From: Obelidium mucronatum
Taxonomy: Eukaryota > Chytridiomycota > Chytridiomycetes > Chytridiales > Chytriomycetaceae
Assembly: GCA_025765595.1 (NCBI GenBank)
Contig: JAIVFH010000005.1
Location: 124,001 to 188,000 of the forward strand
Reading direction: 5' to 3'
DNA length: 64,000 bases
A program made the translations under genes and the position numbers. This document shows positions 20,781-34,701 of this stretch, piece by piece (positions within the stretch are counted from its first letter, which is position 1; each line of letters opens with the position of its first letter). The notes beneath the pieces are model-generated. The model was not told the origin of the DNA and did no database searches. It saw nothing but the letters and a program-made list of their open reading frames with translations.

Positions 20781-21014
20781 TGTGTGAAAGGTTCTCAATC
20801 CCTTATCGGCTATCTACAATCTCCATCTTCTTTAAATATCGGGAGCCACCCAATTTTGCTCGGTATCTTTTCAGTTTGTAATTGAATCGCTGCCGTCGAC
20901 ACTTCCACCACCGTTGCTCACATCCAACAGAACGCTTCTAGTGTCCCGACCGCAATCGAGTCAATTCTTCCAACCCGGGAGTTACCGACGCCGCTATCGC
21001 TACATCGCTTCATT
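20781..21014 (+). repeat. Copia 3' LTR, 234 bp
   Basis: It is preceded by the polypurine tract TTGGGGGG and starts TGTGTGAAAGGTTCTCAATC. It matches the 5' LTR apart from the missing 128-bp segment and CAACAGAACG versus CAACGCAACG-type variation near 20927. Confidence 0.9.
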
Positions 21015-21124
21015 AGTTGGCGTCTTTGGTTTTGGGTTAGTGGGTAGGGCTGCAGTTTGCGCAGCCGAGACAGACAGTAGTAAGCCTATGGTTATTAAGC
21101 CAAGGGCCGCACCTGCACACAACA

Positions 21125-21696
21125 ATACCCACCAGAAAGAAGAGATCCCACTTTGAAAACCAACACGGCAAACAAAAATGTAATTTTACGTCCAAAGATA
21201 TCTAAGGAGAGGTGGCACCGCCATGGCGATGAATACAATTGGAGGTTTCAACAGGTGACTCACCGGCAAACTTTCCGTAGACAAGACCCATCGGCGCAGC
21301 AGTGAGTAAGTAGGCGCTTCCTTGATAGTTAGTAATATTTATTTCAGTGAAGATCTTATTCTGTCCGGCCTCAGTCTCACCAATCCAAGCAATGAGTTCT
21401 TGGCACCCAAATTCCTCCACAACAGCTTGCAACGCTGTTGCAACAATTGTTGGATCAATCAAGGCAAGCATGATCGCAAGCATCAATCCAATCATTACCA
21501 AGATAAATGCACTTCAACTGAGAGGAACCCGCACTTCAGTTGTTGGGTCCACAGCCTCAGAGACTTCGAAGATCTCCAACAAGGAATCCTGCGATTCTGC
21601 TTCATTTAAACCCTTTGATTCGTTTGTTGCAGATGCAGCTAGGAAGTCTTCTGTGTGTGGCTCAAGGGGAATGGCCTCTGTGTCAGTGGTAGGCAT
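21125..21696 (-). pseudogene. DHA2-type MFS transporter, 5' part, separated from its 3' part (MFS3)
   Basis: The minus-strand start at 21696 (MPTTDTEAIPLEPH) leads into an acidic N-terminus. One break near 21510 follows, then IDPTIVATALQAVVEEFG, GSAYLLTAAPMGLVYGKFA and, past an intron, DIFGRKITFLFAVLVFKVGSLLSG. The sequence stops matching the family at 21125, exactly where the gypsy LTR begins. The next family segment is found at 11780, on the far side of the insertion. The break lies at the intron site that follows GSLLCG in the paralogues. Confidence 0.85.
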
Positions 21697-21758
21697 TTTT
21701 ATGACAGTTTTAATTTAGGTTAAGTGGGTGAAAAAAGTGGATCAAGATTTTTTTATTG

Positions 21759-23736
21759 TTAAACTGCCAATGCAACCTCCTTTCCTTCCTCGATGCGGTA
21801 CTCTTTGATCAGAAATGCCATGACAAAAATAATCACAGGGTAGGCTAAAAGCGACAAGTAAGACACTTTGAATGCACCGTTAAACACCCGAATCAAGTCA
21901 GCATTCGCTTCAGCTCCATTAGAAAGAAATGTAACGGATGTGAGCAATTGTGAGAGCGCAAGAACATCTGTGGCTTGAATATCAATGCCTTTATCGTGTA
22001 GTTGCGACAAGGCATTCATCAAAGTTGGATAATTGACAATGTCATTAGCAATTAAATTGTTGAACAAGGCGCCTGTGATTGCAATTCCGACTGCCCTATA
22101 GTTTGAACCATGTAACCATGTATTATTAGTGATTGTCTATATCCATGCGATTGACCCCTTACCCTCCAAGTGGAACCGCAGTTTGAGCCAAACCAGTTGC
22201 GATTGCAAGATATTCTTCAGAGCATGAAATTTGTGCTGCCGCAATGCAGGTTTGAGTAACAAGACCGGTACCGACACCAAAAATGAACAGGTAAAAGATT
22301 TGTTGGACAAGGTATGAGGTGCCATCCAAGGTGCTAATCAATGAGATTCCAGTTATCATGAATATGGGAGCCATAAAGTATGTGTATCTGTAGCTTCCAT
22401 TTGCGGACATAATGACGCCAGTTACGATACATAGAACAATGTGGCCAAACACAAGTGGGACTGCTTTCACACCTCCGACTGTCGCAGAATCCCTGTTCAC
22501 GATCTGAAAGAACAAAGAAACTGGAAAAAGAAAGGAACTGAGTTAAGGGAAAAGCAGCTTTCCAGCTCATTCTTACTGTAGTAAATTGCACCAATAAAGG
22601 CAGCACCGATAGCTAATCCAGAAATAAGGATAGCTGTTATACTAGTGTTCGAAAAAAGACCAGGCGGCACAATGGGCTCCTTTGCCACTCTGCTTTCAAC
22701 ATAAGCAAACAGACTCAAAAGAATGGCTGTCAGGACATAAAGCAGAATAACTTGCGGAGAACTCCACGCCCAGACACTGCCGCCAAATTGAGTAGGTGTA
22801 ATTAAGGCCGCGATAATGCAAAATGTAAGAAGTACACCAATGATGTCAATTCGTTTGCATTTCTCGGTGAAACTTCCAGTTGGCGTGGGAAGCCGGAGAG
22901 ACCAAATAACAGCTGGAACGGCTATAGCTCCTATAGGCAAGTTGATATAAAAACACCTGCAACAGTACTTAGTTATATCCAAAATTTCACTGTTTGGGTG
23001 CAAGGTACCATCTCCAAGTGACGTGATCAGAAAAATAGCCTCCCACCAATGGTCCAATAATGGTGGCAAGACCATAAACACCTCCAACAATTCCTTGATA
23101 CTTTGCACGGTCTTTGTATTCTGCAATATCAGCGATGATGATGAAGGCAATCGTGAAGATTCCACCTCCGCCAATGCCTGTCCAAACCAAAAACGTTCGT
23201 TAGTTAACATTTAAATGAGTTCAGATATGCTAGGCATTACCGGCAATGGCTCTCCCCAAAATAAGCACCGACATATTTCCCGCTACACCACAAATCAAAC
23301 TTCCGATCTCAAAGACCACCATTGTAAAAACAAACACGTATTTACGACCGAACAAGTCGGCTAGTTTCCCATACATAATTCCGAAAGGCGCACTGGTAAG
23401 CAAGTATGACGATCCAACCCAAGGAATCAAATCTTGCCTCCCAAAGTCCCCCACAACGGCTTTGAGTCTAGCCAATGGTATAGTTATGGTAGGTGCATTA
23501 TCTTTCTGGAAAACTTACGCAGTTGCAAGAATAGTAGCATCCAAGGAAGCCATAAGCACAGCCATAGCAAGACCAAGCAGAACAGAGGTAAACTCTCTGC
23601 CGCTTAAGGAGACAGCGGGTCCCTTTTTAGCGTCAGTAGCAGTGCTTGCGACAGGATCGAGACGATTTGCCAAAGCCGTTCCGCCAGCTGCAGCCTCAGA
23701 GATGAGGAGGTCGGGTGGCATAGTGTTCTCAGACAT
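21759..23736 (-). CDS. DHA2-type (14-TM) MFS exporter, apparently intact (MFS4)
   Basis: The only member of the five-gene cluster I can read without a frame break. Exons in order are MSENTMPPDLLISEAAAGG to SLDATILATA; LKAVVGDFGRQDLIPWVG; GSSYLLTSAPFGIMYGKLADLFGRK; GRAIAGN; GIGGGGIFTIAFIIIADIA with motif C TIIGPLVGGYFSD; CFYINLPIGA to IYYS; then ISLFFQIVNRDSATVGG (joined across an intron near 22540) and the last bundle to KEVALAV. Predicted role is proton-driven export of hydrophobic compounds at the plasma membrane. Motifs A and C support antiport; the substrate cannot be told. Confidence 0.85.
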
Positions 23737-24134
23737 CTACAAATTGGATCTGGAGAATTTTCTGATCCTGGGTTTTATGTCTTTTGAATTTGTCAACAGA
23801 ATAATCATCTCTTCAGTGTTCTGAATTCGTCAACAGTTCCCACTTGTTTCGTATGCCGCCAAGTGCCACTGGCCGGCTCTTTACACCTTCCCCAGCGCTG
23901 CTGCGTGTGATGATTAATAATCGTTCTCAAGCGGCCCACAGGTTGGTATTAAGTTTGCCCACCGTTTTCTCCTACCAAAATAATGTGCCGCCCACTTTTG
24001 ACAGCGTCGGAGACATTATACTCAGGATCATTCGGAAAAGCACCGCGAAACATTTGTCGCAAACATCCGTTAATCAATACTTTTATATTTCGAAAGCAAA
24101 ACCCAGTAAATAAAAAAGATGCAGAATATCGTGA

Positions 24135-26135
24135 TCATTTGTTCTCGACAGGCGGGGCTCTCATACTGAACTGCTTAATGAAGAAAGTCATACCCAAGAT
24201 GGTGATTGGGTATACTAACAAAGTCAAATAAGCAATCTTGTACCCGTGATTGAATACTGCAATCAAGTCACTGTTGGCAGCGCTTCCATTCGCCAAAAAT
24301 GGTATCGACTTGAGCATTCCTGATAAAGCCAACACCTCGGTGGGATGGGCTGGAATTCCGTGAGATTGGAGTTCTTTAACGGCAGCAAGAAGGGCAGGGT
24401 AGTTTCCAACGTCGGATGAGATGATGTTGTTGAAGATTGTTCCAGATATGGAGACACCGGAAGGGCAGGGTAGTTTCCAACGTCGGATGAGATGATGTTG
24501 TTGAAGATTGTTCCAGATATGGAGACACCGAAAGCGCCACCTAGTGTCATGCAAGTTTGAGAGACAGCCGTACTGTAAACAGAAGATTCAGCAAGCAAGC
24601 TTTCTCAGTATAACTCACTCACACTATGGCAATAAACTCAATAGGAACGGACGCTTGGATAGCAAGAACTCTGGTTTGAATCATGGCTCCACAACCAATA
24701 CCAAAGATCAAGAGGTAGAAAATCTTTTCGACAAGCAACGAATTGATATCCAGAAATGAAACTAAAACAGACCCAACAATCATAAATACAGGTCCAATGT
24801 AGAGGAAACGCTTGTAGTTTCCAGTTTTCGAAATGTAGACTCCAGAAGTTACTGTAGACCTTGTAAGAAACCCGACTAAAACCTTCCTAACACTTACTTG
24901 AAAGAATAACAACTCCAAAGACTAAGGGAATAGTCTTGATTCCAGCAGATGTTGCGGAGTCGCCGTTGACCACTTGGAAAAAGAGGGAAATGTAGTACAC
25001 AGCACTGAAGAATCCAGCCCCCATACAGAAGGCAACAACCAGTAAAGCGGGAATAGAAGAATTAAGAAACATACTGGCTGGAATGATAGGTTCTTTCGCG
25101 ATCTTGAGTTCCACATACGCAAACATGGCAAACAAAATCGGAGCCAAAACAAACAAAGCGACAGTTGGGCCTGAATTCCATTCCCAAATAGATCCACCAA
25201 GCTGAAGAGGTGTAATAATGGCAATAATAGCTGCAAACAAGGTAACAATTCCATAACCATCGATTCGTCGGACTTTAGCAGCCAAAGCTCCTTCAGGAAT
25301 TGGGAAGTTCAAGAAGACAATAACAGTCCCGACAGTCACAACACCCAGTGGTAAGTTGATATAGAAGCACCAGCGCCAAGAGACATGGTCAGAGAAGGCT
25401 CCACCAATAAGTGGCCCAATAACTGATGAAAGTCCAAAGCAAGCTCCGATCATTCCTTGAAACTTTCCACGGTCTTGGATGCTTACAATATCACTGATAA
25501 TGATAAGAACACAACTGAAAATCCCACCACCGCCAACACCGGCAATTGCTCTTCCGAGAATCAAGGTTTCCATTGTTGGGGCAATTCCACACAAAAAGGA
25601 ACCAATCTCAAATACAATCAGGGCAAATACAAAAACCCACTTTCTGCCGAATAAATCGGCAAACTTTCCATATAGAGCGCCGAATGGTGCAGCAGTCAAT
25701 AGGTAAGCGGACCCTGATAGAATTCAGTTATCATCAGTGGTGGTAGATGAGTAAGCCCAACTCACCGATCCAGGGAACCAAGTCTTGGTGACCCAAATCT
25801 TGCACGATTGCTAATTATTTGGGATTGTACGTTTGTATTAGAGATTGCAAAGCAGCCGAGGCAAAGAAGAGAAACAAACCTTTCAACGCTGTTGAAACTA
25901 TGGTCTGATCCAATGCGGCCATCATAATACCAAGCATCAAACCAATAAAAACGAGAATGAATTGACTTCGTGTGAGCGGAACCTTGATGCCAGAGTCGCT
26001 TTTGCTTGCAGCACCAGAATGGTCAATCTGGAGAGCAACATTCTCTAGTGTTTGAATAGCGACCGGCGAATCGCTTGAGGCGGCAGCTGAAACTAGAAGC
26101 CCAGATGCAGTGGTTTTTTCGTTGTGGGTTTCCAT
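24135..26135 (-). pseudogene. DHA2-type MFS exporter, frame broken by a 71-bp tandem duplication (MFS5)
   Basis: The start at 26135 (METHNEKTTASG) and all domains match the intact paralogue: DQTIVSTALK, IQDLG-type linker, DLFGRKWVFVFALIVFEIGS, RAIAGVGGGG, motif C SVIGPLIGGAFSD, SLFFQVVNGDSATSAG, TSGVYISKTGNYK and TLGGAFGVSISGTIFNNII. Introns splice cleanly, for example the 3' splice before TSGVYISK at about 24855. The only lesion is a 71-bp duplication at 24391-24532, which repeats SGTIFNNIISSDVGNYPAL and shifts the frame by two bases. Removing one copy would give a complete gene ending APPVENK, so it is either freshly inactivated or an assembly artefact. Confidence 0.8.
24391..24532. repeat. 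71-bp perfect or near-perfect tandem duplication inside MFS5
   Basis: AGGGCAGGGTAGTTTCCAAC begins at 24391 and again at 24462. The 71-bp units differ only at the last positions (ACACCGGA versus ACACCGAA). 71 is not a multiple of three, and no AG dinucleotide is available on the coding strand within the unit to splice it out. Confidence 0.93.
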
Positions 26136-26343
26136 GTTTCAAACAGGATTTTTTTGGAGAAGTTGATTGGAAATCGATTGAAATCAATGAGGTGATTTGC
26201 AATCGTAATGACACATCGAAAACAAATGTCCACTCGGATTATAATGTAGGGTTCGTTCGTTATCTTCGACTTCGGATGTCCATTGCTGACTGAAGATGCT
26301 GGAATTTGTATCGGTTTTATTTCTTTTTTTTTTTTCAATCAGC

Positions 26344-26848
26344 ATGGTCAGTCAAACGTCAACACTATGGGAATCTAACGACCTCAACAACACAGGGTCG
26401 CAACGCCAAGTTCACGAAAAGGTTGACTAAGAAAGAAAAAGACAGTGTTCGTATCACTGCCAACTCTGTGTCAAAGAATGCCTTGGGTTATGACCACGAC
26501 ACCAAGTCTACCTTGAAGAAAGCAGCTAAGGCTCTTGGTGCAAAAGAAGGGCTTAAGTCGGGCGGCGTCAAGACTACTCTAGGTCCAGCCGGTGGACTTC
26601 AGGGGAACTTGGGCTCGGATCCAACCAATGTACCAACAGCTCCCAATAAGAAGGACATATTCGCACTTGTGAACTTATCAATCAAGAAAAGCATCTCTAA
26701 AGAAGCGGGTAGTATGGATATTGACCTGCCGGTACCAAGGACGGACAAGAAAGAGAAGGCTCCATATGTAACTGCAGGAATGGTTGATTATGTCGATCTC
26801 ATGAACTCACGTAACCCCAAGAAACTCGTACGGAAACTGAAGAAATAA
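26344..26848 (+). CDS. Small basic protein, Lys-rich, family not recognised
   Basis: The best model has a first exon of only the ATG (26344-26346). A 51-nt intron follows (GTCAGT, branch CTAAC, 3' ACAG), then GRNAKFTKRLTKKEKDSVR onward to KKLVRKLKK and TAA at 26846, about 150 residues. The N-terminus is strongly basic, the middle Gly/Lys-rich, and a short acidic SMDIDLPVP segment precedes a conserved-looking YVTAGMVDYVDLMNSRNP. Basic composition with one acidic patch is typical of small nucleolar or ribosome-assembly proteins, but I cannot name a family. It diverges from MFS5 with about 210 bp between the starts. Confidence 0.6.
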
Positions 26849-26906
26849 AGTTATCAGTGGCAATTTTTTATTTATTAGGTGTTTATGAGGCGACAATATG
26901 CATACA

Positions 26907-27152
26907 TCAAATTGAAAGAGGGTCAAGTTCAAAGTCCATCTTCAGACTGACAAGTGCGTTGATTCTAGATCGAAACTTTCCGGCCTTTGATAGAACCTTT
27001 TGTTGCTTTTGTTGTGTCCGGCATTTGGAGTCTCGACTGAGCATCGAAGACGATAAAGAGGGATATTGGTACGTTTGAGACTCGGAGCCAGCCGTTAACC
27101 GCTCGGTACTGCTAGATTTCGAGAGCCTGCGGTATTGATGAATGCGGTTCAT
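26907..27152 (-). CDS. Possible small gene, 81 aa, or untranslated sequence
   Basis: This is the only credible frame in the 500-bp gap between two genes. It has an ATG at 27152, a Ser/Arg/Lys-rich 81-codon frame and a stop at 26907. It lies on the strand of the downstream PX-channel gene and 3' of it. No domain is visible and the composition is unremarkable, so it may be chance. The rest of 26849-27356 holds nothing I can identify beyond AT-rich 3' sequence. Confidence 0.25.
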   Translation of the reverse strand: MNRIHQYRRLSKSSSTERLTAGSESQTYQYPSLSSSMLSRDSKCRTQQKQQKVLSKAGKFRSRINALVSLKMDFELDPLSI

Positions 27153-27356
27153 AATTATTTCTTTTCTTTCAATGCATCAATATCATTGTTTCGTTTTGTC
27201 TTCGCAACCAGCCACACCAATGCCCAGGAGAACCAGCCACGTTTCTGGTTCACTACCAAACCAGGACGAATCAAAAATAATAAGGTTCATTTTTATTTAT
27301 ATTCTATTTCTATCTCTCTAAAGAGGAGGTTCAATTGAATTCATCAAATAAATCAC

Positions 27357-30300
27357 TTATTCCTTCGACGGTGTTTCAAAGTAACTCGAAAGGGGGCTCA
27401 ATAACGACGACCCCCACCCTGTGGATCCTGATATAATTCTTTCTATGGGGCTATAACTTTCGTCCAGAAGAAACCTTCGCAATGCCTGTCGAAGTGTGGG
27501 TTAGACAGGTGGAATACAAAAAACTGAGAAAATTCAAACCATTGATCTGGTGTGTATGTAGGAATCTGCAGCAACTCTATTAGGGAGGATCAAACAACTG
27601 TTAGGGAAACTTCTTGACTATCCATAGCTACTCACGACTTCAAGAATGATGCAAATGCTAGACGGCGCGCCTCAACAACATCCTGAGATTTGTTGAACAA
27701 AACAGATACCTTCGGAGGAATCGGCGCAAAGTTTCGGCTGTTGAAAGGTATAAGAAGTCGTAGTCAACACAGCCAAAAAGACTCACGTGGGAAATTCATA
27801 GACTAAATCCTTCCTAAACGCATCAAAATCTCTATATCTACGTCTCGCATTTCCTGTTTGAGGATAATTTGGGATGCTCATCTGTGTTTTTTGTTTAACC
27901 TCTCGGCGTTCAAAACCAATGGTGTTACCTTTGATACGACTTCATACTCTACATAGTGATCTTTTCCTACAATATGCTCTCTTGGATTCAAAACATCGAC
28001 TTCCAGAGAAGTCACGATAACAGGATCAGCCTTACGAACATAGTATATTTCAGGCTCATCGCTGGCAGGTGCGATTTCCTTCGTTTCGAAAACGGATAAA
28101 TCACCACCCTGTTCTATGGGTGGCTCCTCCTCTATAACGTAAGGCTCGGAAACGTTAACTTCGGGTTCCTCTATGTGCTCAATGACAGCTGGTTCTACAT
28201 CTGTAGAATGGGTTTCGGGAACTTTTACACCAAAATCCGAGCGATCAACCTGTTCGAAGAGAGGAGGTTCTGCAGCTGAGATATTTGGCTCCAGAGATTT
28301 AGAACCGTCCTCAACCTGTCCCGCAACCTCCGGGCCTTCAATGGCATCCAAGAACAATTCGGATTCGGTGACAAATGGATTGTGACTTTGAGTTTTATCT
28401 ACCGGTTCTGGAATTTCCGTTCCTGGCAAATTCTTGGGCCCTTCATCGAAGTCCTCTGCATTTTCATCCACAATAAGCAAGCTTTCCTCATTCTTGAGTT
28501 CTTGGTCAGGAGCAAGACGAGGGATTGAAGCTCGAATGATAACCATTTCGACATCCATACTCGCTTCCGCAGGAACAGCTTCCACTTCGTTGGAAGATCG
28601 CAAGTCGACTAATGCAACTTCGTCATAAATCAATGGGCCTTCTTCGACAATAACTATTTCCTCAACCGAAACAGTTTTTTCTACAAGGTCGGTGGGTTCT
28701 TCCGATGACCTTTCGGTCTCGGACATTGAGGTTTTCGTCTGCTCTACAGGGTCCTCAAAAAGAGCTTCGACCACTTCTTCATCAGTTGCTTCATCTCTAG
28801 GCTCTTCCACAACGATTTCGGGTACCACAACTGATGGAGTTTCTTCGCGTGAGTTGCTTGCATCAGCAGGCGGATCTTCGTCATCATGGCTACTTTCCGC
28901 CGCACTTCCAATATTTCCCGCCAATTCTCTTTCAATTTCTACCGCAACCTTATCTTGAATCGAAAGCTCTTCGAGACTTTCCGGAGGTACGCCACCCATT
29001 GCTTCCAACTGGCCCATACTCAGATCTTGAATCTCTTGATAAGACAGTTCGCTGGCTTTCCCACCTCTCAACAATCTTTTTGCAATATCCTGCTTCCGCG
29101 CTTGTAAGGAAGGCAACGATAGAGCCCATGCACGGACACGGGGATCGTTTGGATCTTGGGGGGCTCTCACGCGTGGGGTATAGCATTCTTGAATTCGTTG
29201 GGAAGTGTATTTGGGATCCAGTAAAACTCGAGGGAGAGGAGTGACGAATTCATGATTGAAAACTTGATACTTCAGAGAAAGTCTCACATCTTTGCCCGCT
29301 TCAGCCGCAAAAGTTGCAGGAGATGCTTTTGATGCCTTAGATTCTGGGTCAGATAGCTCCAAAAGGTCATCGACGCAGTAAAGCCCTTGTGGAATTCGAA
29401 ACATCCGCATCCATAGCCACAATAAAGCAGTGATAATAGGAAGAGGTGCCAAAATCATCCATTGCTTGAAAGCTGGGATACTGTCTGCGGGGGAATAAGA
29501 TGTCGACGCATTTTGAGCAAACACGACAAGAAGTGTAATCAGTTGAAAAAAGAAGACTGATACTGAAAGAACATTGAAAAGCTTCGGAAAGAAAGAGCCG
29601 TGTGTTTCCCGTTCGACCTCATAAACATACTGAAAAACCTATTAGTGAAAAAAGTAAAAGCAGCAACCATTACCATCAGTTGGTACTTCATCACCACAAA
29701 CGTGATTCCAAAAAAAAGCATGCTGAATGGAAGAATAAAGGGTGCAATGATGGAGAAAGTCAACGAGATAGTGAATGCCATCACCAAAGTAACATAGAAC
29801 TGGTAGAAAAAGAATCAGAAAAAAAAAATTCTCTGACCAAATCCCGTCTAACCTGAACAAAATCCATTTTTGCCATCCCATTCAACTCGTATTCGTCGCG
29901 TGGTGTCAATTTGAAAAACTGACGTCGTATGAAACTGATAATGAGCTTCAGACCTTGAAGAATTTCGAAACCGAAGCCGGCATAGAATGAGGCCAGCATC
30001 GTAATGTAAAAATACGAGTTCTGTAAGCGAATCACAAAACATTTGTTAATCATCATAGCGAACAAGCGGAAATTGTACCTGAGCGAGACTTTCAATGGCA
30101 GTAACGACCTGGTTCAGTACTGGATCCGTGTATACATATGTCGGAAGTTGGCTGGTTGTAGCCGCGTTATTCTGGATCATTCCGGAGATCAGAGCAAACA
30201 GAAAAATTTGGATCATGTTAAAAACATAGTTCTTGTAAATGATGCTCCTGTCGCACCCTGCGCCAGACTTGACTCCTTGCAGAAAGGTGATAAATTCGAG

Positions 30301-32279
30301 GATATATGGCAGTAGAACATTGCAAATCGCGACAGGAATGGGGCAAAGAAATGTTTGAAAAAAGTTTTGCCATCCAGGATTACTTTGAAGCCAAAGTAAA
30401 GCAGAAGCATTGTTTTGGAAAAGGACCGTCAGGTTCTGCAGAGTCGACAAAATTCCAAGCAACATGATAAACCCGACAGTGACTGCAACCGTTATCACCA
30501 CAGCAAAAAATCTCCTCGTATATATTTCGGCGGGAGAGCGACCAATGTTCGACCAATAAATATCTGGAAATTCAGGCGCAAACTTGATGTGAAGCCCCCC
30601 AAATTTTTTGATATACTTTGGATGTGACTTGAGAGTCTTGATGAGGCGATGTGCTTGTTGGGGAGTTCGAAGAGACAAGAATCCCGATCCATTAGATGGA
30701 TTTTGGTCTTCAGGAATGCTGCGAATAGCCTCAATAGCCTCCTCGAGTTTATTAATCTCGCTTTCCAGCACCTTGACCTCGTCTGCTCGCTCTTGCTGCG
30801 TCTTTGATTTTGTTCTGAGTTGCTTCAAAATGTCGTCCTTAATTCGCGAAGTTTTGCTCTGGAACTTGTAGTTGTCCTGGGGTTCGTGACCAGCCTCCAA
30901 AGCGCTGACACTAGATCCAGAATGTTGATGACTTGCATTGTATAAATCGTCAGACAAAGTGTGGGGTTGGTTTTCCACAAGAGCGGTGCTATCCGTTTCC
31001 TCTCGAACACTTGATCCCAATTTCTCGGAGTCTTCGGTTTCAAAAATATTGGTCAAGAGCACCTCAAGCTCCTTTGTTTTTTCTTTGTGCTCTTGTAGTA
31101 GTTTTCCCAATCTCGTTGAGTTCCTGTTGATGGTGGCTTCATCAATTTCTAGAGATGGGTCTCTGAGGTGAACAAATTCAACGAGCTCCTGACTCGTCTT
31201 AATGTTGGGAATATAGGTGATGAGTAAGGTTCGATGGGAAACTTGTTCCAAAAATTCAGCTGTTGTGAAATAGAAGCGGCGATGTTTGACATAGAGTTGG
31301 CAGAGTTTAAACAACATCCCATAGGCCACGATACTGAAAATCCAAGTCAACGCAGTTGGCAGCCAAAACCAGCTGCTTTTAGTGTCGATTTGCAAGAGAG
31401 TGAGAGAGCTCAGCCCCGAGGTGACAATCAACGAGGCGTTTACTGGCGGATCAGTGGATGCCTCTGACTCGAGGCGCAGTGCGAAGGAAATGGATTTACT
31501 TGTGTTCGAGCAAGCGATCACATCCCGGTAGCAGAGCAAGCCATTTGGACAGTCGGCGTCAATCAAGCAAATGCCCCCACACGTTGAATTTGCATTCGCC
31601 CAACTTGACCCGCAGCGAACTTGAAGAGAAATAGACGGTAAGGTCGGAGATGGTCGAATGATTGAAGTAGTTGTGGCAGTGGGGGCTGGTGTAACAACTG
31701 CAGATCCGTTATTGGTGACTGAATCGTAGACGGTTTGGTCGATCCCGTTATTGGCCGAAGATCCAGTGATGTCAGTAAAATACAAATTAAAAATAGAGTA
31801 AGGAACTCCGATGCATGTAAGAACCACGAAAGTGAGAAAGAGATATTTGTTGAGCTCAAGAAACATAGTCGCATCGCTAGCCGATAAATAGTTAGAACGC
31901 CTAGTGATAGGCATGCAAAGTACTTACAGCCCTAAGCGAGTTACTTTATGGTGCCCTTTCGCTCGTTTAAAGATGGGTTTCGTCCATGCCAGTGGTCTCT
32001 TGTCCAACGGATCAGGCGCCGTGTCTACTTCCTTTTCAGCGAATTCCAAACGAGGCTGAAATATATATCGATTCGAGCCGTGTGGACGAAGAAGCGAGAA
32101 TGCCAAAATGCAGACTGTGGATGGTTGACAGTTAGCCAATTTCCATAACAAGCGTAGGGCAGACCAAGGGCCACAAAGGTTTGCAGAGCAAAGGAGACGA
32201 GGACTCCAGCTACGGTTACGTCTCCAGAGATGGCGATGATCGAAACTACCGCATCATAATCTGCAGTTAAGTTGCTCAT
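27357..32279 (-). CDS. CSC1/OSCA/TMEM63-type cation channel fused to a C-terminal PX domain, 10 exons, ~1493 aa
   Basis: Exons on the minus strand are 32279-32150, 32114-31928, 31876-30079, 30020-29853, 29799-29674, 29638-27929, 27881-27787, 27737-27636, 27576-27540 and 27485-27357. They sum to 4482 nt with every junction in phase. The N-terminus has a TM anchor, the family motif GLDATMFLELNKY, an extracytosolic Cys-containing loop and the cytosolic RRM-like segment (TLLITYIPNIKTSQELVEF). The 7TM channel core follows (SPAEIYTRRFFAVV, LQGVKSGAGCDRSIIYKNYVFN, LVMAFTISLTFSIIAPFILP, QYVYEVERETHGSFFPK). Next come about 400 acidic, Glu/Val-rich residues and a PX domain assembled from five exons: DHYVEYEVVSK, RRRYRDFDAFRKDLVYEFP, FAPIPPKVSVLF, EARRLAFASFLKSVAAD and LRRFLLDES. 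CSC1 proteins are osmosensitive Ca2+-permeable channels and PX domains bind phosphoinositides. Their union in one protein is what the sequence shows. Confidence 0.85.
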
Positions 32280-32774
32280 GCCAATCGAACCACTTTAAAC
32301 GAAGAAAAAAGAATTGGATGTGTTCTATTTACTCATCATGCCTCCATCCTTCACCCACTTCAATTCTACAATCAACTTCTTAACTAAAAAGTCCTGGTTT
32401 CAATCCTCGATTGAAAATGCGGCCATCCAGCCAAATACTGGCAAAGGCTTCAACTTGCTTTAACGTAACTCCACGATTTATAGAAAAGACGATTGACGGT
32501 GGATTGGCGAGAGCTCTTCCAGCTTTTACGGCAGTACTAGGTAGCTGTAAGCTGCTAGATGTTGGTCTTCTTTCACTAAGAAACCCTGAAAGAAACCCCT
32601 CCAGGTGTTTTGAGAGTTTCTCCTTCACAACTTTTGGACTAATCAGCCAAAATCTGCATGGACTTAAACTTAATAATTAAAGTGGGAATGATTTTGGTGA
32701 TGAATTTTAACAACAACTTGTCGTCTCACATCATTATGAAAAGGCTAATCAAAAACTTCCAGCAAAGCAAACAA
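32280..32774. other. Spacer without a supported gene
   Basis: About 500 bp between the divergent channel gene (start 32279) and the secreted-protein gene (start 32775). Short open frames exist on both strands (32411-32680 plus, 32380-32628 minus), but neither has a domain, a signal peptide or splice support. The segment presumably holds the two promoters. Confidence 0.5.
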
Positions 32775-34701
32775 ATGTCTGTCAGACGACTTTCCATCAC
32801 GCTTCTAGTAACTCTGGCTGCACTGAGTGCACAAGATGTATCAGCCTCGCAGATTGTGGAAATCGTCGAGCTCCCTGTACAAGTTATTCAGCAAGTCCCT
32901 CAAATTCAACAAGTTGTTCAACTTGAGTCCCTTCCCATTCGTCAGCAAATTCAAATTCTCCAAGAACAAGGAATTCCCATTGACATTCAGCGCCAAATTC
33001 AGATCATTCAACAGCAGCAAAGGCAGGAAGAAATTCGAGTACTTCAGCAAACTGGCCAAGTTATCGTGCAGCAAAGGCCGCAACCACCGCGACCAATTGC
33101 TGTGGGCACCAAACCAAGTGCTTCCATTAACAAGGTACTAGACTACCAGTGCCTTGTTTCCTTGCCATTATATCTGTACTTAACGCATCACTATAGCCCA
33201 AAATTGTTCTAGCGCCTGAAAGAGCGACTGGTGTCAAGCAAGGTGGCGAGGCAACCAAATCAAACCAGCCTCCTGCCAAGAATCTTCCCGCTAAACCCGT
33301 CGAGCCGATCAAATCAGAGCAAGTGAACCCGAACGCTCCTCCAAAATCACTTCCAACGCCGGAATCTACAAAAGCAATTGCAGAGCCGGGAATCAAGGCT
33401 GCCGTGGAGAAGGGAACCTTAAACGGGGCAGCGAAGGGCGCGGCCAACGAGAAGACAGGATCCATTGAGACCAAGACCACTGGAACTACTGAGATTAAGG
33501 CAGCCGGGACTACCGAAAGTAAAGCTGGAACCACTGAGGGTAAGCCTGCTGGAAACGCCGAGACCAAGGCCACTGGTATCGAAGGATCTACCAAATCAGA
33601 CGAATCTGTGGAGAAGGGTGCCTCGAAGAAAGCTGTCATTTCTAGCGAAAGCAGTGTCGGTGAAAAGACCATGGGAACTCAAGTGGAGGGAGCCGGTGGT
33701 GAAGGGGTCCCCAAGCCTACCAAAACCATAGCTAGCGGCGAAGAAAAAGCCAGCGAAACCGCTGCAACCAAAATTGCGGAAGAAACCACTGGTGCAAAAA
33801 AAACTAGCACCGTGAGTGCTGGCGAGGGAAGGATGCCAAGCAAGAGTCTGGAAAGGGTGCCGCAACAACAAGTGAAAACACCGAAACGTCCAAAGGAGTT
33901 GGAAAAAGTTCTGCGGCTGAAAATGCCAACACTGGTGTCAAGGAAGAGAAAACAAGTACTGGAAGCAAAGAACCTCCCAGAGAAAAGCCAGTTATTGCTA
34001 GCAAAGAGACGGGATCCATGGAAAGTGGTACTGTTGAAGGAAATCCAAGTACCGAAGTGAAAGCAACCGTGGAGAAACCATCCACAGGAACTACGGAAGG
34101 GAAGGAGCCTGGTTCCGCTGAAACCAGAGTTCTCGAGGAAAAGCCAAAGGACAGCAACACTACAGAAAAGAACTCTTCGTTGCCACCCTTGCCGGAACCA
34201 ATCACTAAGCCAGATACTTCAGCCGAGACGTCGACGAGTTCAAAGGAGCTACCACCACCACTCCCACAGCCAATTGTCACCAAGCCCAAGCCAATTCCAG
34301 CAAACGGAGATAATGCGGGCACTGTTTTGAAGGAAGCTGCAGCTTCTCCTGCGAAAGAAAAGAGCATTGAAAAGGGTGTTGAAAGCGGGGCTGGGATTGA
34401 AAAGGGTGTTCAAAATGGGGTTGGGATTGAAAAGGGTCTTGAAAATGGGGCAGGAATTGTAAACGGTTCTGTCACCACTGAAAGCGAAGGTATTACAAGA
34501 ACTACAGGAAAAGTTACGAAGGCAGTTAAGCCTGCAAAAGCTGAAACCGACGAGAAGTCGGCAGCTGAAAAGCCAGCATCGGGCGTAAATACTGACGCCA
34601 ACAGTGTTGTAGCGAAGGGGATTAATGCACCACCAGCAATCTATTTGAATGGTGGCGTCAAAGAGTCTACTCCAAAGGGTCCAACTGGTGAAAGACGTTG
34701 A
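32775..34701 (+). CDS. Secreted Thr/Lys/Glu-rich repeat protein, possible wall or mucin-like protein; one frame break
   Basis: The ATG at 32775 gives a signal peptide (MSVRRLSITLLVTLAALSAQDVSA). A Gln/Ile/Val-rich amphipathic stretch follows (VIQQVPQIQQVVQLESLP). A 62-nt intron (33136-33197, GTACTA..TATAG) joins NK to PKIVLAPERATG. After it come about 480 residues of degenerate Thr/Lys/Glu/Gly repeats (TTEIKAAGTTESKAGTTEGK) and a triple (G)IEKG(V/L)(Q/E)NG motif near 34370-34450. Around 33820 the frame must shift by one base to stay in the repeat composition (SAGEG to DAKQESGKG); a 1-nt indel there is likely. No GPI or TM anchor is evident. A function in the cell wall or extracellular matrix is inferred from secretion and composition. 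Confidence 0.65.

What the first reader, a model, noticed from the sequence alone, without database searches (positions are those of the whole stretch)
27357..32279. A CSC1/OSCA/TMEM63 mechanosensitive channel with a C-terminal PX domain
What look like three separate reading frames, plus a stretch with no long frame, join into one 10-exon gene of about 1493 residues with all junctions in phase. The channel core runs directly into a 400-residue acidic linker and then a PX domain whose first strand (DHYVEYEVVSK) is encoded at the end of the acidic exon. PX domains bind phosphoinositides, so the channel could be tethered to, or gated by, PI3P-containing membranes. I know of no described CSC1-PX protein, though I could not search.
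Basis: partly seen in the sequence, partly recalled or inferred. Interest (0 to 1): 0.82.

Follow-up and report, generated by a model that had tools for sequence, protein, structure and literature searches.

The report
Stretch channel with lipid-binding tail
A chytrid fungus gene encodes a mechanosensitive-type ion channel with a lipid-reading PX domain on its inner tail and a small cysteine-rich module, also seen on chitinase-type proteins, on its outer side; related chytrids have it too, and what it does has not been tested.

Summary
The finding is real. Window 27357-32279 (-) is a 10-exon gene of Obelidium mucronatum; the deposited model is 1485 aa, not 1493, as two splice sites differ. It carries the three OSCA/CSC1/TMEM63 Pfam domains and a PX domain, all over cut-off. 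The PX is of SNX3/Grd19 type; its first 26-28 residues lie in the exon of the last channel helices and acidic linker, and the four residues required for PtdIns3P are present. PX, whole or partial, is in models of four other genera; the sixth genus of the clade, Chytriomyces (MP71), shows none. All seven clade rows are from family Chytriomycetaceae, sister to channels without PX.

I read the protein as a stretch-gated cation channel whose PX steers it to PI3P membranes; lipid binding, wall binding and gating are inferred. My paper searches found no description. New variant of a known kind.

The parts
27357..32279 (-). whole coding gene, 10 exons (32279-32165, 32114-31928, 31876-30079, 30020-29853, 29799-29674, 29629-27929, 27881-27787, 27737-27636, 27576-27540, 27485-27357), 1485 aa
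29399..32279 (-). OSCA/CSC1 core, about residues 1-875 (exons 1-5 and the start of exon 6, with introns): RSN1_TM, PHM7_cyt, RSN1_7TM and the last predicted hydrophobic helix
   Evidence: Pfam; matches to solved OSCA chains; hydropathy
31510..31614 (-). six-cysteine module (P0001 residues 189-223) in the TM1-TM2 loop, extracytosolic by OSCA topology (topology recalled)
28013..29326 (-). acidic linker, about residues 900-1337 (boundaries set by eye), net charge about -66
27447..28012 (-). PX domain of SNX3/Grd19 type, residues 1338-1456, over exons 6-10 (four introns inside)
27882..27928 (-). intron 6 (47 nt), the junction that joins the linker exon to the rest of the PX

Best explanation
Shown: one gene model, matching the deposited one, encodes an OSCA/CSC1/TMEM63-type channel core followed by a roughly 430-residue acidic, probably disordered cytosolic linker and a SNX3/Grd19-type PX domain; the TM1-TM2 loop carries a six-cysteine module that in the same genome also occurs on secreted-type, partly chitinase-type proteins. 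Inferred: the core is a stretch-gated, calcium-permeable cation channel like its relatives; the PX binds PtdIns3P and so steers or holds the channel on endosomal/vacuolar membranes or recycles it from them (a sorting nexin built into its own cargo); the outer module binds wall or chitinous glycan when the channel is at the cell surface. I think targeting/recycling by the PX is the likeliest role, with tethering in trans and lipid gating behind it.
For: Domains; solved OSCA relatives. PX is SNX3/Grd19-like (7blq 1.5e-15, 1ocs 7.4e-13), and SNX3/Grd19 PX selectively binds PI(3)P (PMC7990337, passages). The four residues stated to be required for PtdIns3P (Arg-Tyr pair, PPK-loop Lys, alpha2 Arg; PMC6449406, passages) are all present in the window protein and in Siphonaria P0002. 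Same architecture in related genera: PX whole or nearly so in Physocladia P0005 and Entophlyctis P0006, partial in Siphonaria P0002/P0004 and Podochytrium P0003. Clade 100/100, joined to non-PX Chytriomycetaceae channels at 96/92. Module on GH18/CAP proteins of the same genome. Allele comparison dN 0.0036, dS 0.0162.
Against: No transcript, localisation, lipid-binding or electrophysiology data. The PI3P site is not uniform in the clade: Physocladia has Lys for the first Arg, Entophlyctis has Gly in the PPK-Lys column. Chytriomyces MP71 P0007 has no PX in its model, and for Rhizoclosmatium globosum, of the same family, only a non-PX channel was found. The module has no Pfam match in the channel and no fold match, so glycan binding is guilt by association. 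Allele differences are too few for a per-domain test (PX region: no substitution at all; linker dN 0.0055, dS 0.0085, i.e. close to neutral).
Confidence: 0.55

Rival explanations
1. Two separate neighbouring genes: a channel that ends after the acidic region and a short PX gene starting at the ATG at 27881.
For: An ATG sits exactly at the start of exon 7, and without splicing the linker exon runs into a stop after 16 further codons.
Against: The SNX3/Grd19 match starts 26-28 residues before the junction, inside the linker exon; a gene starting at 27881 would lack that part of the PX. Four of seven related models hold channel and PX together by Pfam, and of three truncated models two stop at the places of introns 8 and 7 while the third leaves the family sequence at intron 6.
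Confidence: 0.03
2. Trans tether: the channel sits in the plasma membrane and the PX on its long linker grips PI3P on a nearby endosome or vacuole, making a contact site.
For: A linker of about 435 residues, acidic and poor in conserved positions; outer module of a kind found on secreted-type proteins.
Against: Nothing shows the channel at the plasma membrane; contact sites were not looked at; a flexible linker serves cis binding as well.
Confidence: 0.2
3. Lipid-gated channel: PX occupancy by PI3P in cis changes the open probability.
For: PX and pore are in one chain; PI3P-site residues intact in the window protein.
Against: The long, poorly conserved linker (254-470 residues in the six rows measured, boundaries by eye) makes tight coupling to the pore less likely.
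Confidence: 0.13
4. The PX no longer reads lipid and serves protein contacts, or is decaying.
For: One of the four PI3P positions is changed in Physocladia and another in Entophlyctis; no PX in the MP71 model.
Against: Four of four residues kept in Obelidium and Siphonaria P0002; no substitution between haplotypes in the 363 bases of exons 7-10.
Confidence: 0.09

Closest known systems
OSCA/CSC1/TMEM63 channels (e.g. Arabidopsis OSCA1.2, PDB 6mgv/6oce)
   Same: RSN1_TM, PHM7_cyt and RSN1_7TM in the usual order; sequence match to solved OSCA chains, best E 2.8e-24
   Different: long acidic tail ending in PX; six-cysteine module in the TM1-TM2 loop; OSCA-type chains match only the channel part and sorting nexins only the PX part, no chain both
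SNX3/Grd19 sorting nexins
   Same: PX of the same type, aligned over about 110 residues; PI3P residues kept
   Different: SNX3/Grd19 consists only of a PX domain and acts as a separate retromer adaptor (PMC7990337, passages); here it is the tail of a channel
non-PX sister CSC1 of the same family (Rhizoclosmatium globosum P0013, Podochytrium P0014, Chytriomyces MP71 P0015; Obelidium C54)
   Same: closest channel relatives; Obelidium C54 is 72% and 64% identical to P0013 over two stretches
   Different: no PX in the Pfam lists of P0013-P0015, no six-cysteine module by pattern, 894-1015 aa; no PX in the 9.9 kb C54 stretch searched
Rhizoclosmatium hyalinum P0012, 'Sorting nexin-3, partial'
   Same: its two PX domains are 54% and 51% identical to this one, the closest found outside the channel clade
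   Different: PX-PX-coiled coil (coiled coil judged by eye), no channel in the 932-aa fragment; the Obelidium relative of the coiled coil shows no PX within about 1.5 kb

Membership tests
OSCA/CSC1/TMEM63 | RSN1_7TM (PF02714) over cut-off | tested here: met
   137.8 bits, cut-off 28.7
OSCA/CSC1/TMEM63 | RSN1_TM and PHM7_cyt before it | tested here: met
   56.9 and 66.7 bits, cut-off 27 each
OSCA/CSC1/TMEM63 | sequence relation to members with solved structures | tested here: met
   chain 6oce, stress-gated cation channel 1.2, E 2.8e-24
OSCA/CSC1/TMEM63 | stretch- or osmotically gated cation current | not testable with these tools
   no experiment
PX domain, SNX3/Grd19 type | PX (PF00787) over cut-off | tested here: met
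   45.8 bits, cut-off 21.6
PX domain, SNX3/Grd19 type | SNX3/Grd19 are the nearest solved relatives | tested here: met
   17 sequences at E<=0.01, the top six are SNX3/Grd19
PtdIns3P-binding PX | Arg-Tyr pair, PPK-loop Lys, alpha2 Arg | tested here: met
   R1380, Y1381, K1406 and R1421/R1422 in P0001, criterion from PMC6449406; Physocladia and Entophlyctis each miss one
PtdIns3P-binding PX | lipid binding | not testable with these tools
   no experiment
SNX3-retromer adaptor | binding to VPS26/VPS35 | not tested
   retromer-contact residues were not examined
carbohydrate-binding module | match to a known CBM family or fold | tested here: not met
   no Pfam match to the module in the channel (at E<=1, at E<=0.1); Foldseek 0 matches, model pLDDT 70.8
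carbohydrate-binding module | found beside glycan-active catalytic domains | tested here: met
   3 of 5 module-bearing frames scanned hold GH18 over cut-off; the five were picked by eye from 28 other loci
carbohydrate-binding module | binds glycan | not testable with these tools
   no experiment

The most novel reading that the evidence does not exclude
A doubly anchored mechanosensitive channel: outside, the six-cysteine module grips wall or chitin; inside, the PX on a long acidic leash grips PI3P membranes, so that strain between wall, plasma membrane and endosome/vacuole is turned into calcium entry. OSCA/TMEM63 channels are usually described (recalled) as gated by bilayer tension alone, so this would be a force-from-tether member of the family, born by gene duplication in the Chytriomycetaceae.
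Probability: 0.2. Interest if true: 0.85.

Novelty: new variant of a known kind. Interest (0 to 1): 0.6.

Why it matters
Chytrids alternate between wall-less zoospores that pump water out with contractile vacuoles and walled, turgid sporangia (shown for Batrachochytrium dendrobatidis, PMC12818911, passages including part of the summary). A channel that carries its own endosomal lipid reader and an outer module shared with chitinase-type proteins is a candidate for linking wall, membrane tension and the endosomal/vacuolar system, and gives a test of whether OSCA/TMEM63 channels can take force or location cues from built-in anchors. It also shows an SNX3-type PX fused to a would-be cargo.

Tried and rejected
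Separate PX gene at 27881: rejected. PX by exon-wise genome search: the window's own PX is not among the 21 matches, because it is split over exons; so that list cannot show that other channels lack PX. I therefore searched 9.9 kb stretches around the four other CSC1 places (C54, C80, C5:294 kb, C168) with a PX profile of the clade: best of the four E 0.75, against 8.6e-15 for a piece of the split PX in the C593 copy. A PX further away would be missed.

Sensitivity of the protein searches is limited and the misses show it: the PX-region search did not return P0005 and P0006, which do hold PX, and the channel-region search did not return P0005. So 'no other PX channel found' is weak evidence of absence.

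Known name for the six-cysteine module: none found. Pfam gave WAP just over cut-off (21.2 against 20.8 bits) on one chitinase frame and Dickkopf_N below cut-off on another protein, nothing on the channel; PDB sequences gave 12 matches at E<=10, best 0.0077 (OCT2), not convincing; folds none. Its CG-x2-W-x6-C opening recalls CBM1 (recalled only). One general paper search on chytrid cysteine-rich/GH18/CBM terms was only looked at as a listing, 12 of 69. Retromer cargo motif: a PEIY[YF]V stretch precedes the PX in P0001-P0004 and loosely resembles the consensus discussed in PMC8041195 (passages); P0005-P0007 do not keep it in that form, so I give it little weight. Acidic-hydrophobic repeats in the linker (e.g. 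EEIVIV, DDEIVFIK) were noted by eye, not tested.

A published CSC1-PX description: listings (3 of 3; 14 of 14; 20 of 58; 10 of 970; 10 of 14; 15 of 28), and passages of PMC10655083 (a PX protein only as a predicted partner of an alfalfa OSCA), PMC2837644 (no occurrence of channel or DUF221) and PMC4102429 (no occurrence of DUF221 or channel) gave none. The library lacks most subscription papers. PMC9108448 was seen in passages on the tether model; (Obelidium genome) gave two TPPP papers, listing only. The structure of the whole protein was not predicted (1485 aa, limit 1200); one of two structure jobs was unused.
Full report
Where it is. The window is G000:C5:124001-188000. The protein encoded at 32279-27357 (-) is deposited as BDR26DRAFT_851353 of Obelidium mucronatum on a 712,742-base contig, the length of C5. 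The deposited 1485-aa model is recovered letter for letter from the window with ten exons. P0003 sides with the deposited version at both, P0006 and P0007 at the second; P0002 and P0004 have extra residues at the second site.

Is it one gene? The Pfam hits on the joined protein are RSN1_TM, PHM7_cyt, RSN1_7TM and PX, all over cut-off (scanned on the 1493-aa version). The PX match to Snx3 (7blq) and yeast Grd19 (1ocs) begins at residues 1340 and 1338, that is 26-28 residues upstream of the 27929/27881 junction, in the exon that also encodes the last channel helices and the linker. A PX gene starting at the ATG at 27881 would lack that part. Three relatives' models break off near PX introns: P0002 at intron 8 (P0001 residue 1431), P0003 at intron 7 (1397), and P0004 leaves the family sequence right after intron 6, as expected if automatic prediction failed at introns in shared positions; their DNA was not seen. 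P0002 and P0004 come from the same strain and are marked UNVERIFIED_CONTAM by the source.

Second haplotype. Contig C593 holds a copy of window 21014-34222 at about 99% identity, with neighbouring frames in the same order, so I take it as an allele. It keeps the frame (one stop, at the end), differs by 12 amino-acid changes and one missing residue, dN 0.0036 and dS 0.0162. PX exons 7-10 carry no substitution; the linker (dN 0.0055, dS 0.0085) looks less constrained than the channel (0.0034, 0.0228), on very few changes.

Relatives and origin. The whole-length search gave 11 proteins: the window protein, six more of the same clade (Siphonaria twice, Podochytrium, Physocladia, Entophlyctis, Chytriomyces MP71) and four others without PX. 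All seven are of family Chytriomycetaceae, order Chytridiales. Of the seven rows, Pfam lists PX for four (P0001, P0002, P0005, P0006); P0003 and P0004 show its beginning by alignment; P0007 shows none. The PX-region search gave 5 proteins, 4 of them from the clade and one the Rhizoclosmatium hyalinum PX-PX fragment; it missed P0005 and P0006. The channel-region search from Entophlyctis gave 18 proteins; none outside the clade carries PF00787; it missed P0005. These searches see only proteins that share exact words, so absence elsewhere is not proven. In the tree of 19 of 24 proteins the seven rows are one clade (100/100), joined at 96/92 to P0013-P0015, with Blyttiomyces (Chytridiomycetes incertae sedis) outside. 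Podochytrium and Chytriomyces MP71 have members in both clades, and Obelidium has its second one at C54 (72% and 64% to P0013 over two stretches), so the split is best read as a gene duplication. Rhizoclosmatium globosum, of the same family, appeared only with a non-PX member. The far part of the tree holds long branches and is not used.

The six-cysteine module. In the loop after TM1, residues 189-223 read C-G-x2-W-x2-A-x3-C-x3-C-x5-C-x5-C-x6-C. The pattern is whole in five of seven clade rows (twice in Physocladia); P0007's model starts inside it and P0004's after it; none of the 17 other proteins held matches. Twenty thousand shuffles of the loop gave no match (pattern chosen after the fact). 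In the own genome 40 places match at E<=1, two of them this gene and its allele, and some of the others allelic pairs; the count is a lower bound. Of five other module-bearing frames, picked by eye from 28 loci, three have GH18 over cut-off (two of them also CAP) and two have no family over cut-off. Several other frames show a signal-peptide-like start or a hydrophobic stretch near the end by eye. By OSCA topology (recalled) the loop is extracytosolic, which agrees with secreted-type relatives and with N-x-S/T sites there (one search prints the loop). AlphaFold gives mean pLDDT 70.8 with seven rows; no PDB fold matches. I therefore call it a candidate wall- or chitin-associated module, not a CBM.

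PX function. PMC6449406 (passages) states that the human PX domains that bind PtdIns3P have four side chains: Arg-Tyr at the beta3/alpha1 junction, Lys in the PPK loop, Arg in alpha2. The window PX has R1380, Y1381, K1406 and R1421/R1422 opposite the same letters of Grd19. Siphonaria P0002 keeps all; Physocladia has Lys for the first Arg; Entophlyctis has Gly for the Lys (a Lys follows two residues on); Podochytrium shows only the first two, both kept. So PI3P binding is likely in Obelidium and Siphonaria and less sure in the other rows.

Mechanism. Shown: architecture, clade, conserved residues. Inferred from family knowledge: stretch-gated cation conduction. Inferred from PX type: targeting to or recycling from PI3P membranes, in which SNX3/Grd19 works with retromer (PMC7990337, passages including the abstract). 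Tethering in trans and lipid gating remain possible. A link to the switch between contractile-vacuole and turgor modes of chytrids (PMC12818911, passages) is speculation; that work is on Batrachochytrium, order Rhizophydiales.

Novelty. The fusion is visible in public protein records as Pfam hits on hypothetical proteins, so the data exist; my paper searches (partly capped listings) found no description. It is a new variant of a known channel family with two added modules, not a new kind.

Noticed in passing
G000:C64:88341-90320 (L067-L069) and P0012: In Rhizoclosmatium hyalinum two PX domains of this type head a protein that looks coiled-coil; the Obelidium relative of that part shows no PX nearby, so this PX type seems to have moved between proteins, or one record is misassembled. 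The second PX has Ser for the Arg of the Arg-Tyr pair.
   Followed up: partly
G000:C494, C319, C61, C8, C27, C64 and others (L033-L060): A large family of six-cysteine modules on secreted- and surface-type proteins (GH18, CAP, Ser/Thr-rich stalks) for which no Pfam name was found here.
   Followed up: partly
window 33197-34701 (+): Low-complexity, repeat-like reading frames; the corresponding frames on the C593 haplotype are arranged differently.
   Followed up: no
P0005, residues after about 1350: The deposited Physocladia model runs from channel-PX into BMT5-like and ankyrin domains, probably a mis-joined neighbour gene.
   Followed up: no
window 28037-28054 (-), P0001 residues 1324-1329: PEIY[YF]V stretch just before the PX in four of seven clade rows, loosely like an SNX3-retromer cargo signal.
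   Followed up: partly
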